18,697 bases of DNA from an uncultured Anaerolineaceae bacterium (GTDB lineage Bacteria > Chloroflexota > Anaerolineae > Promineifilales > Promineifilaceae), in NCBI GenBank assembly GCA_937967805.1, contig CALBTC010000151.1:1-18697 (forward strand), read 5' to 3'. Below the pieces are notes generated by a model. It had not been told where the DNA came from and made no database searches. It saw only the letters and a program-made list of their open reading frames with translations. Positions 9,542 to 12,007 of this stretch are shown in pieces. Made by a program: the position numbers and the translations under genes. How positions within the stretch are numbered: the first letter of the stretch is position 1; each line of letters begins with the position of its first letter.

Positions 9542-10543
9542 TCAATTCTCGATTCGCTGCAAAGACCAATCGTCAAGGAAGAAACCGTTGCTGGCCAGGG
9601 CATAGCGTCCACGAATGCCTACACCTATGCGTACCGTCTGCGCGGTATCAATGGTGAAACTATGTTGGAAGGTGCCCCACACGCCGAAGCGGGCAAAGGT
9701 CAGCCAGCCGGTGCCTCCGCCGGGCGTAATAAAGCGTACTTCACCGGCGTTCGGGTCGCCAGAAAACTGCTTGCCGCCTTCATAACTGGTTACCAGGTCC
9801 GGAAAGATGTACACAGTAAAAACATAAGTGCCCGGTTCTAAGGCAATATCCTGCAGCAGCCTCATGCTGATGGGGCCATTCCCCTTAAACGCTTTAATCG
9901 TGTAATCTCCGTGCCGGATAAACAAGTCGCGCTCATTTTCGGGGAGCTGGAAGTAGGGCAAAACGCGCGTCTCTGGTGGAAACCAGATGTCCCATTCTTC
10001 CCCGCCAAATCCGGTGGGGCCGGTATCGTATTCCATGGTCCAGCCGTTGGGCAGCTGGAATTCCGGTGCACCAAACATATTGTACCAACCCCCTTCAAAG
10101 GAACCGTTGACCAACAGGTTACCGCTCAAAACCGGCTCGGCCGGCGTGGTGGGCGGCGGTGGTGGTTGGGTGTTTACCGGGGCGGCGGTGGCCGGTACCT
10201 GGGTGGGAGCGGCCGTTTCCGTTGGCGGTGCTGTTTCTGTGGGAATGGGCGTGCTGGTTGGCGGGGGTGTGCTCGTTGGCGGGGGCGGCGCTGTAGGGGC
10301 CACAGTGGCCGTTTCTATAGTCTCGGTAGGCGTCGGCGGCAGTGTCGGTTCTGCGGTAGCTTGGGCAACTTCCACGGCGGCGGTGATGGGGGCCTGGGCG
10401 GTGACGGTGAGGGAGACGGCCGTGTCCACCGTGGCCTGTACGTCTACTGTCGGCGTCTCCGGTTCGCTTTGGCAAGCTACCAATCCTAGCAACAGCGTAA
10501 TTAGCAACAGCCATTGGCTGTAAATCAATTGTTTTCCCTTCAC
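9542..10543 (-). CDS. lipoprotein with Pro/Thr linker and carbohydrate-binding-like C-terminus
   Basis: The 333-residue product starts at GTG 10543-10541, with a GGAGG site at 10550-10554, 6 nt upstream. A TTG at 10636 has no such support. A signal with the lipobox LVAC (C24) is followed by about 110 residues rich in Pro, Thr and Ala. The C-terminal domain of about 190 residues begins NLLVNGSFEGGWYN and contains LPNGWTMEYD. Openings of the form NGsFE...P.GW are typical of jelly-roll carbohydrate-binding modules (CBM4/9-like), and the end LASNGFFLDDWSL fits a final beta strand. The ligand is unknown. It is probably an exposed surface protein. Confidence 0.75.
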   Translation of the reverse strand: MKGKQLIYSQWLLLITLLLGLVACQSEPETPTVDVQATVDTAVSLTVTAQAPITAAVEVAQATAEPTLPPTPTETIETATVAPTAPPPPTSTPPPTSTPIPTETAPPTETAAPTQVPATAAPVNTQPPPPPTTPAEPVLSGNLLVNGSFEGGWYNMFGAPEFQLPNGWTMEYDTGPTGFGGEEWDIWFPPETRVLPYFQLPENERDLFIRHGDYTIKAFKGNGPISMRLLQDIALEPGTYVFTVYIFPDLVTSYEGGKQFSGDPNAGEVRFITPGGGTGWLTFARFGVWGTFQHSFTIDTAQTVRIGVGIRGRYALASNGFFLDDWSLQRIEN

Positions 10544-10587
10544 GACAATCCTCCAGTTCAATCCGGTTACACGCTTAACAAAGAATA

Positions 10588-10637
10588 ATGGGTAACACGC
10601 TGCCCTGTTGGACCCAGTTACCCATCTGTGTAACACA
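10588..10637. repeat. dyads in the divergent lipoprotein / R2lox control region
   Basis: ATGGGTAAC (10588-10596) and GTTACCCAT (10617-10625) form a perfect 9-bp inverted repeat with a 20-nt spacer. Two bases later comes the 11-bp palindrome TGTGTAACACA (10627-10637). The word GTAACAC or GTTACAC occurs three times between 10565 and 10637. On the minus strand the larger dyad would form a hairpin in the leader of the lipoprotein mRNA. It could be an operator cluster or an RNA element; no known regulator is assigned. Confidence 0.5.
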
Positions 10638-10765
10638 TCTTTTAATGGAATGAACGGTGCGAATTGTATGCAGGTGAGTTTGAATTAGCAAATTGAGGGG
10701 GAGAAAATTTTTTGCATTGGGCAACAACAGGATAAACTTGACCTACAACTTCAAAGGAGCTAATG

Positions 10766-11665
10766 ATGACCCACCAACAATTTCTCACCACCAGCAGTGG
10801 CTTACAGCGGCACATTCCACCGATGCGTCTTTATGAAAAAGCAAAGCGGCTGGGGATTTGGAACCCCAGCGACATTGACCTGGCGCAAGACAAGGCAGAC
10901 TGGCAGCGGCTTGAACCACAAGAGCAAGATTTACTGTTGCGCCTGACGGCCATGTTCCAGGCGGGCGAAGAAGCGGTGACGCTGGATCTGCTGCCGCTCA
11001 TCCTGGCTATTGCCCAGGAAGGCCGCCTGGAAGAGGAGATGTTCCTTACCACATTTTTATTTGAAGAGGCCAAGCATACCGACTTCTTCAACCGCTTTTT
11101 GGTAGAAGTGGTGCAGGCTGACCCCGATTTAAGCCATTACCACACCGAAAATTACCATGCCGTCTTTTACCAGGCATTGCCCCAGGCGCTGCGCGCTCTG
11201 CAAGCCGACGCTTCCCCTGCCGCCCAGGTGCGCGCCTCCGTCACCTACAACATGATCGTGGAAGGCGTTTTGGCCGAAACGGGCTACCACGCTTACTTCA
11301 CCGTGATGCAGCAAAACAACATCCTGCCCGGCGTGCGGCAAGGCATCCGGCTCCTCCAGCAAGATGAATCGCGCCACATCGCCTACGGCATCTTCCTGCT
11401 CTCACGGCTCGTCGCCGCCGATGATGGGCTGTGGGAAGTGCTGGAAGAAACAATGAATGAGCTGCTTCCGCCAGCCTTGGGCGTGGTCGGAGACGCTTTT
11501 GCTTGCTACGAGGTAATGCCTTTTGGCCTGGAGGAATCGGTTTTCACCGACTATGCACTGAACCAGTTCCAGAAACGGGTGGAGCGGCTGGAAAAGGCGC
11601 GCGGTGCATCGCTAGACGAGATTTACCGCGTGACACAGCGGGCTATTGATGAGAATGACAGTTAG
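10766..11665 (+). CDS. R2-like ligand-binding oxidase (R2lox), Mn/Fe ferritin-like
   Basis: This is a ferritin-fold oxidase related to class I ribonucleotide reductase R2 but without reductase function. R2lox proteins assemble a Mn/Fe cluster, bind a long-chain fatty acid and form a Val-Tyr ether crosslink. The 299-residue product keeps the metal ligands in AGEEAVTLDLLP, EEAKHTDFF, VEGVLAETGY and DESRHIAYG. The crosslink residues are also present: Val in EEAVT (71) and Tyr in TYNMIVEG (161). The physiological substrate is unknown. Two adjacent ATGs occur (10763, 10766); AGGAG at 10755-10759 is 6 nt from the second, which I chose. The gene is divergent from the lipoprotein. A hairpin follows the stop. 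Confidence 0.93.
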   Translation: MTHQQFLTTSSGLQRHIPPMRLYEKAKRLGIWNPSDIDLAQDKADWQRLEPQEQDLLLRLTAMFQAGEEAVTLDLLPLILAIAQEGRLEEEMFLTTFLFEEAKHTDFFNRFLVEVVQADPDLSHYHTENYHAVFYQALPQALRALQADASPAAQVRASVTYNMIVEGVLAETGYHAYFTVMQQNNILPGVRQGIRLLQQDESRHIAYGIFLLSRLVAADDGLWEVLEETMNELLPPALGVVGDAFACYEVMPFGLEESVFTDYALNQFQKRVERLEKARGASLDEIYRVTQRAIDENDS

Positions 11666-11703: not shown

Positions 11704-11744
11704 TTAAGATAGATGCAATTGCAACAAATTTTAAGGTTGGATTG

Positions 11745-11774
11745 TTGACGGCCGTTCCCCCAATTTTCTATAAT
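11745..11774 (+). promoter_or_regulatory. strong sigma70-type promoter of the structured RNA
   Basis: TTGACG (11745-11750) and a consensus TATAAT (11769-11774) are separated by 18 bp. This is the best sigma70-type promoter in the window. The -35 box overlaps a copy of the ACGGCCGT palindrome (11748-11755). The predicted start is near A11781. No protein gene on this strand follows before convergent genes; the structured RNA begins here. Confidence 0.75.
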
Positions 11775-11780
11775 GCAACC

Positions 11781-11989
11781 ATACTGAAGCCATATCACCC
11801 CGGATGACACCGTAGACTGGCCAGGGAATAGGCACTTTTGAAATCTCCACTCGTGAGCCTGCTTGCTTCCGCAGCAGTTACCACCCAGGAAGCCAACACC
11901 TGTCATTGGCCACGATGAGATTCACCAACATAAGGCTGCTGAAACTTGTGCTATTCCAGGTCTACCGTCCCTCTCCGGGGTTTCTTTTT
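11781..11989 (+). ncRNA. free-standing structured RNA, 6S-RNA-like architecture
   Basis: The predicted transcript runs from the promoter start to the T-run TTTCTTTTT (11981-11989), about 209 nt. By hand it folds into one long interrupted hairpin. CCCCGGA (11798-11804) pairs with TCCGGGG (11974-11980), GTAGAC (11812-11817) with GTCTAC (11960-11965), and GGAATA plus GCAC (11825-11835, one bulged G) with GTGCTATTCC (11948-11957). Then AATCTC (11842-11847) pairs with GAGATT (11917-11922), CGTG-A-GCC (11852-11859) with GGCCACG (11908-11914), and GCTTCC (11865-11870) with GGAAGC (11888-11893). The last pairing closes a 17-nt apical loop. The asymmetric central bubble (6 nt against 25 nt), the closing stem on a terminator and the size resemble 6S RNA. 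No 6S sequence signature is claimed. tmRNA, RNase P and SRP RNA signatures are absent. The next gene is convergent, so it is not a leader. Confidence 0.72.
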
Positions 11990-12007
11990 GCCAACTGCAC
12001 AACTGTC

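What the first reader, a model, noticed from the sequence alone, without database searches (positions are those of the whole stretch)
11745..11989. Unannotated structured RNA gene with own promoter and terminator, 6S-like fold
A near-consensus promoter (TTGACG, 18 bp, TATAAT) precedes about 200 nt that form a single long hairpin made of seven separate complementary blocks in nested order. The hairpin closes with CCCCGGA/TCCGGGG directly before TTTCTTTTT. Nested complementarity on this scale is very unlikely by chance. The following gene is convergent, so this is not a leader or riboswitch. Length, terminal stem and asymmetric central bubble resemble 6S RNA, which mimics an open promoter and binds RNA polymerase. 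Without sequence signatures this could equally be a new RNA class of the lineage.
Basis: partly seen in the sequence, partly recalled or inferred. Interest (0 to 1): 0.8.

Follow-up and report, generated by a model that had tools for sequence, protein, structure and literature searches.

The report
New structured RNA family, not 6S
A stretch between two genes in a Chloroflexota bacterium encodes a small RNA that folds into one long hairpin, is found in about half the sampled genomes of its order, and matches no known RNA family; it is not the 6S RNA it was taken for, because its relatives carry a normal 6S RNA elsewhere.

Summary
The window sequence alone folds only modestly better than chance (10 of 200 shuffles do as well). 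But the RNA occurs once each in 29 of 56 genomes of one Chloroflexota order, with seven nested helices supported by compensatory changes: 35 inferred events against 1-4 in slid controls. All 30 copies, window included, have a near-consensus sigma-70-type promoter, 29 with an 18-nt spacer, and a closing helix followed by a U-rich tail. Flanking genes vary, so this is a standalone RNA gene, not a leader.

No Rfam family overlaps this RNA at E<=10 (17 of 29 relatives), and a model of it finds nothing at 15 of those 6S loci. SRP RNA is also elsewhere (17 of 18).

I conclude it is a new, order-restricted family of trans-acting structured RNA. My mechanistic guess, inferred only, is a protein-binding RNA docking through its conserved apical core. 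RNA-polymerase binding in addition to 6S is a weaker rival.

The parts
11726..11736 (+). Conserved upstream element AAATTTTAAGG, just upstream of the -35 box
   Evidence: TTTAAG stands upstream of the promoter in 26 of 30 copies (missing in L096, L097, L102, L103); the pattern TTTAAG + promoter gave 14 matches in 12 genomes, 12 of them at this RNA, 0 for the reversed control
11745..11750 (+). -35 box TTGACG (overlaps the octamer ACGGCCGT, 11748-11755)
11769..11774 (+). -10 box TATAAT
   Evidence: best promoter has 11 (24 copies) or 12 (6 copies) of 12 matches, spacer 18 nt in 29 of 30 (best site in 130 nt, no shuffle control)
11781..11989 (+). Structured RNA gene, about 209 nt; the start is inferred as about 7 nt after the -10 box, the end is the U-rich tail
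   Evidence: no transcript data
11797..11804 (+). P1 5' arm (pairs with 11974-11981), closing helix that probably also serves as terminator stem
   Evidence: 97.1% of cells paired in 30 sequences, two-sided change in 7 of 8 pairs
11974..11981 (+). P1 3' arm
   Evidence: P1 duplex -8.9 to -16.6 kcal/mol in 30 copies, local 30-nt fold -0.5 to -7.1 (the two are not strictly comparable)
11810..11817 (+). P2 5' arm (pairs with 11960-11967)
   Evidence: two-sided changes in 8 of 8 pairs (its helices 2 and 3)
11960..11967 (+). P2 3' arm
11819..11825 (+). P3 5' arm (pairs with 11945-11951); imperfect in the window itself
   Evidence: two-sided changes in 7 of 7 pairs across the family; window pairs
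11945..11951 (+). P3 3' arm
11831..11835 (+). P3b 5' arm (pairs with 11936-11940), the weakest helix
   Evidence: 77.0% of cells paired, 2 of 5 pairs with two-sided change; its last pair is not formed in 19 of 29
11936..11940 (+). P3b 3' arm
11841..11847 (+). P4 5' arm (pairs with 11917-11923)
   Evidence: 90.0% of cells paired, 4 of 7 pairs with two-sided change; its first pair is not formed in 18 of 30
11917..11923 (+). P4 3' arm
11853..11859 (+). P5 5' arm (pairs with 11908-11913; 11856 bulged)
   Evidence: 99.4% of cells paired; 3 of 6 pairs never vary, 2 have two-sided change
11908..11913 (+). P5 3' arm
11865..11873 (+). P6 5' arm (pairs with 11886-11893), distal pairs variable
   Evidence: 87.2% of cells paired, 6 of 8 pairs with two-sided change; the three distal pairs are not formed in the window
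11886..11893 (+). P6 3' arm
11894..11907 (+). Conserved unpaired strand CAACACCUGUCAUU between P6 and P5, candidate binding site
   Evidence: 7 of 14 positions identical in at least 27 of 30 sequences
11982..11989 (+). U-rich tail TTCTTTTT of the terminator
   Evidence: 4-8 T in the first 8 bases of the tail in all 30 copies

Best explanation
A new family of standalone, trans-acting structured RNA, roughly 200-250 nt, in one order of Chloroflexota. It is transcribed from its own near-consensus housekeeping-type promoter and folds into one long rod of seven helices. It ends where the closing helix P1 meets a U-rich tail, so the closing helix doubles as the terminator stem. Most likely it works as a protein-binding RNA: the covarying lower helices (P1-P3) act as a structural handle, and the sequence-conserved apical core (P4-P6 with the CAACA-CUGUCA strand) is the docking site that sequesters or scaffolds a protein. 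Shown: family, helices, promoter, distribution, single copy, non-identity with 6S and SRP in relatives. Inferred: transcription and transcript ends, abundance, long-range termination, protein binding. Unknown: the partner.
For: One copy in each of 29 of 56 genomes of the order with two models. Covariation: 89.4% of cells paired against 29.8-46.2% in slid controls and 23 of 49 pairs with two-sided change on an alignment not fitted to structure; 35 compensatory events in 17 pairs against 1-4 in slid controls. Promoter in 30 of 30, its pattern near-unique in the 12 genomes searched. U-rich tail after P1 in 30 of 30. Next gene convergent in 17 of 30 and codirectional in 13 of 30, with varied genes (L141, L145 and L150 ambiguous). 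Longest internal ORF 0-51 codons. Conservation concentrates in P4-P6 and one unpaired strand, the pattern expected of a binding site (inference).
Against: No expression or binding data exist here. Conserved unpaired nucleotides would equally fit a ligand pocket, a ribozyme or an RNA-RNA contact. 27 of 56 order genomes gave no match, and G003 lacks it at the syntenic site (L003), so it is dispensable, or missed in incomplete assemblies. On A1 the number of pair types is not above shuffles (175 of 500 reach it).
Confidence: 0.5

Rival explanations
1. A second RNA-polymerase-binding RNA that works like 6S, Ms1 or CoRP without being homologous to them, used beside the canonical 6S.
For: Rod shape, closing helix, near-consensus promoter and single-copy intergenic gene. 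Lineage-specific polymerase-binding RNAs unlike 6S exist, and B. subtilis has two 6S RNAs (PMC11077062: abstract and section 33 read).
Against: A canonical 6S is present in 26 of 29 carriers. The same paper proposes one type of abundant polymerase-associating RNA per species. No single large central bubble in the consensus. No match between models in either direction: Rfam including RF00013 on this RNA (17 of 29 relative loci), R2 on 15 6S loci.
Confidence: 0.15
2. An antisense regulator whose conserved unpaired strand (CAACA-CUGUCA) base-pairs with mRNAs.
For: Unpaired conserved strand. The complementary pattern occurs 21 times outside the RNA in 15 genomes against 10 for the reversed control.
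Against: In the 17 of those 21 places that were examined, no overlapping ORF was shared between genomes, and the sites lie mostly well inside ORFs rather than near starts (ORFs mechanical). The excess is small.
Confidence: 0.12
3. A ligand-binding or catalytic RNA: the conserved apical core is an aptamer or active site.
For: Invariant nucleotides in asymmetric internal loops flanked by invariant or nearly invariant pairs.
Against: No conserved downstream gene as for riboswitches, and transcription is predicted to end after P1 with no expression platform seen. No Rfam aptamer or ribozyme match.
Confidence: 0.12
4. Chance complementarity or a decayed element, not a functional RNA.
For: Single-sequence folding is only z = -1.77.
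Against: Covariation in 29 related genomes and promoter conservation in 30 of 30.
Confidence: 0.01

Closest known systems
6S RNA (ssrS, Rfam RF00013)
   Same: Length near 200 nt, rod-like fold with closing helix, standalone single-copy gene.
   Different: No RF00013 match; a separate RF00013 6S lies elsewhere in 26 of 29 carriers; several small asymmetric loops instead of one large central bubble; sequence conservation lies mainly in the apical half.
Ms1 and CoRP, actinobacterial polymerase-binding RNAs (PMC4191392 and PMC9130861 seen as search listing only; PMC11077062 abstract and section 33 read)
   Same: Lineage-specific structured RNAs outside the 6S family; possible analogy of mechanism.
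   Different: Polymerase binding untested here; the Ms1 species studied had no 6S detected, whereas these genomes have 6S.
Bacterial SRP RNA (RF00169)
   Same: Rod with a conserved apical part (recalled).
   Different: A separate SRP RNA gene above cut-off in 17 of 18 carriers.
Candidate structured RNAs from comparative genomics such as Chloroflexi-1 (RF01698; PMC2864571, passages read)
   Same: Class of object: a covarying RNA of unknown function.
   Different: No Rfam family overlaps this RNA at E<=10; Chloroflexi-1 is listed there under Chloroflexus aggregans.

Membership tests
6S RNA (RF00013) | Scores above the RF00013 gathering threshold | tested here: not met
   No match in the window at gathering or in 11740-12000 at E<=10; none over this RNA in the 17 of 29 relative loci scanned at E<=10
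6S RNA (RF00013) | It is the genome's 6S, with no clear 6S elsewhere | tested here: not met
   15 of 18 carriers and 26 of 29 carriers have a separate 6S; missing in G012, G021, G043; the window's own genome is not held
6S RNA (RF00013) | Rod with closing stem | tested here: met
   Seven nested helices, no branch point in the model
6S RNA (RF00013) | One large, open-promoter-like central bubble | tested here: not met
   Consensus internal loops in window numbering are 5/6, 1/8, 5/4, 5/12, 5/3 and 5/14 nt; 8 of 49 consensus pairs are non-standard in the window, so its loops may be larger, and nothing was probed
6S RNA (RF00013) | Binds RNA polymerase holoenzyme and templates pRNA | not testable with these tools
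   Needs immunoprecipitation and pRNA assay
Ms1 / CoRP | Binds RNA polymerase core (Ms1) or core and holoenzyme (CoRP) | not testable with these tools
   Needs RIP-seq; no Ms1 or CoRP model was run beyond whatever Rfam holds
SRP RNA (RF00169) | Is the genome's SRP RNA | tested here: not met
   SRP RNA elsewhere in 17 of 18 carriers searched
Riboswitch / cis leader | Conserved codirectional gene downstream | tested here: not met
   17 of 30 convergent, 13 of 30 codirectional with varied genes (L141, L145, L150 ambiguous)
Small protein gene | Conserved reading frame | tested here: not met
   Longest internal ORF 0-51 codons across 30 copies; by eye, single-base indels between copies break any frame

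The most novel reading that the evidence does not exclude
A second global regulatory RNA, acting on RNA polymerase or another central machine, unrelated to 6S in sequence, that works beside 6S in one bacterial order, with a closing helix that is at once fold base and long-range terminator and a promoter pattern nearly unique in the 12 genomes checked. If it binds RNA polymerase, it would be a counter-example to the proposal of one abundant polymerase-associating RNA type per species (PMC11077062).
Probability: 0.15. Interest if true: 0.85.

Novelty: categorically new. Interest (0 to 1): 0.6.

Why it matters
It is an RNA family with strong covariation support that matched none of 4227 Rfam families in the copies scanned, in a phylum where I found few papers on RNAs. 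Its promoter is near-consensus, so it may be abundant and easy to see in existing RNA-seq or metatranscriptomes. In relatives it coexists with 6S and SRP RNA, so it is not a disguised form of those; it points to an RNA-based process confined, as far as sampled, to one order. 'Categorically new' is meant at the level of RNA family: the broad kind of object, a standalone structured RNA of unknown function, is known, and the mechanism may turn out to be a known one.

Tried and rejected
6S: rejected as membership. SRP: rejected. Leader or riboswitch: rejected by context. Small protein: rejected. Antisense through the conserved strand: no recurrent target in 17 of 21 places. A pseudoknot between the P1-P2 loop (UGACA) and the conserved strand (UGUCA), judged by eye on A1/A2, pairs in the window and some kin but not across the family; dropped. 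Wider spread: phylum draw 1 of 400 at E<=0.1, the centre genome itself. Class draws: 19 of 396 with R1 at E<=0.01 and 20 of 396 with R2 at E<=1; 19 of these are all in the order list. The 20th, G348 at E = 0.014, is a 57-nt partial match in a stretch that looks, by eye, like coding sequence without the promoter and was treated as chance. Viral contigs 0 (one exact pattern), plasmids 0, phages 0 (blastn with the window's copy). Dropped before alignment A1: the G070 row (30-nt match), not confirmed by R1; second short matches and the short matches were not used. Literature: in the listed rows (titles and abstract starts; long hit lists were capped) of searches I saw no paper describing this RNA; the library lacks most subscription journals.

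Full report
What is there. The window is Chloroflexota DNA: its R2-like gene (10763-11665, Pfam Ribonuc_red_sm) is 97% identical in protein to that of an Anaerolineaceae MAG (L001). Between that gene and a convergent S58-peptidase gene lies the reported feature. Folded alone, 11780-11995 gives -63.3 kcal/mol, z = -1.77, with 10 of 200 shuffles as good. The single sequence therefore does not prove structure.

Relatives. BLAST of 11740-12000 against 118 relatives of genome G008 gave matches in 19 genomes at E<=0.001. I dropped G070 (30 nt) and aligned the other 18 with the window (A1). On this MAFFT alignment, which was not fitted to a structure, I wrote down 49 pairs in seven nested helices, starting from the RNAalifold consensus and extending it by inspection, so the pair choice was informed by the same data. 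89.4% of cells pair (shuffled mean 81.0; slid controls 29.8-46.2%), and 23 pairs have two-sided changes (0 of 500 shuffles reach that; slid controls 2-9). Further pair types are not above shuffles on A1 (175 of 500 reach the value), and two pairs that I added fail in most sequences (57-169 in 17 of 19, 63-156 in 13 of 19). Parsimony on a FastTree tree gives 35 compensatory events in 17 pairs, against 1-4 in slid controls.

A covariance model R1 found the RNA in 29 of 56 genomes of the order, one copy each. A second, shorter model R2 gave 29 of 56 again. Outside the order nothing credible appeared: class draw 19 of 396 with R1, all in the order; 20 of 396 with R2 at E<=1, the extra one judged chance; phylum draw 1 of 400, the centre itself. 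These draws used stricter filters that lose weak matches, and the two class draws sample the same class. On the 30-sequence alignment A2, which is fitted to R1 and so leans towards it, 36 of 49 pairs have two-sided changes and 90.8% of cells pair. In the window's own sequence 8 of the 49 pairs are non-standard.

Anatomy. Best promoter in the 130 nt upstream of P1: 11 or 12 of 12 matches in 30 of 30 copies, 18-nt spacer in 29 of 30 (no shuffle control). TTTAAG, as part of an AAATTTTAAGG-like element, stands just upstream of the -35 box in 26 of 30. In 12 genomes the element-plus-promoter pattern matched 14 places, 12 of them this RNA, and the reversed control matched none. The distance from the -10 box to P1 varies from 12 to 50 nt. 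P1 is followed by a U-rich tail in 30 of 30 copies, and P1 duplex energies (-8.9 to -16.6 kcal/mol) exceed in each copy what the last 30 nt form locally (-0.5 to -7.1), though the two measures are not strictly comparable. I infer that the closing helix is the terminator stem, with the whole RNA as its loop. Conservation concentrates in P4-P6 and in the unpaired strand 11894-11907. The longest internal ORF is 0-51 codons.

Context. By mechanical ORFs of at least 100 aa, leaving out ORFs that overlap the RNA, the next gene is convergent in 17 of 30 loci and codirectional in 13 of 30 (L141, L145 and L150 are ambiguous because of overlapping ORFs). Neighbours recur only partly: S58-peptidase and OsmC-like clusters in 9 of the 30 fetched loci each, R2-like in 8. 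In G003 the R2-like and S58 genes are adjacent without the RNA (L003, by eye), and no copy was found elsewhere in that genome. This looks like a standalone, movable, dispensable RNA gene.

6S test. RF00013 finds 6S above its cut-off at another place in 15 of 18 carriers. Over the whole order it finds 51 of 56 at E<=0.001, 50 above cut-off. Combining, 26 of 29 carriers have a separate 6S above cut-off (missing in G012, G021, G043), and so do 24 of 27 non-carriers (G042 just below cut-off, G019 and G052 none). R2 finds nothing at E<=10 in 15 6S loci. Rfam finds nothing on this RNA at E<=10 (window region; 17 of the 29 relative loci, where the five reported matches lie beside it). SRP RNA is elsewhere in 17 of 18 carriers. 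So it is neither 6S nor SRP RNA. The window's own genome is not held, so for the window itself this is inference from relatives.

How it may work. Shown: a conserved RNA gene candidate with a conserved fold and promoter. Inferred: since no gene is fixed downstream, it acts in trans; since the apical core keeps sequence while the lower helices keep mainly pairing, the core is the contact surface; a protein partner is a common reason for such a pattern (general knowledge, not tested). I give protein docking 0.5. Polymerase binding beside 6S gets 0.15: lineage-specific polymerase-binding RNAs exist, but Hausnerova et al. propose one abundant type per species (PMC11077062, abstract and section 33). 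Antisense gets 0.12: the complement of the conserved strand occurs 21 times outside the RNA against 10 for a reversed control in 15 genomes, but the 17 places examined share no gene and mostly lie inside ORFs. A ligand or catalytic role gets 0.12.

Limits. The genomes searched are unnamed, and the named contigs behind the Chloroflexota loci are MAGs, so absence in 27 of 56 may partly reflect gaps. The order's name was not given by the tools; I recall Promineifilales as plausible but did not test it. No transcript evidence was available. The reading that it is a new family rests on Rfam 15 and on the listed rows of literature searches in an open-licence library.

Noticed in passing
window, 24 sites (e.g. 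1010, 4447, 11748, 18288); L001-L008: The palindrome ACGGCCGT occurs 24 times in 18.7 kb against 0.39 expected from dinucleotides, and 10-24 times in each of L001-L008, but 0-1 times in L009-L011. It looks like a lineage-specific highly iterated palindrome and overlaps the -35 box of this RNA in 20 of 30 copies. One paper search listed three papers, none of which appeared from title and abstract start to treat it as an iterated element.
   Followed up: partly
L003 (JADLAX010000090.1), just after 5900: Close relative in which the R2-like and S58-peptidase genes are adjacent with no RNA between them (by eye) and no copy found elsewhere: apparent loss or absence.
   Followed up: partly
window 9542-10636 (-): 364-aa protein with a lipoprotein-like start (by eye) and a Pro/Thr-rich stretch, no Pfam match; related ORFs lie within about 3 kb upstream of the RNA in 6 of 30 loci (window, L137, L147, L148, L152, L154; cluster c3).
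   Followed up: no
L060-L074: The canonical 6S RNAs of these genomes show, by eye, a variable apical insertion and promoters further from consensus than those of the RNA reported here.
   Followed up: no
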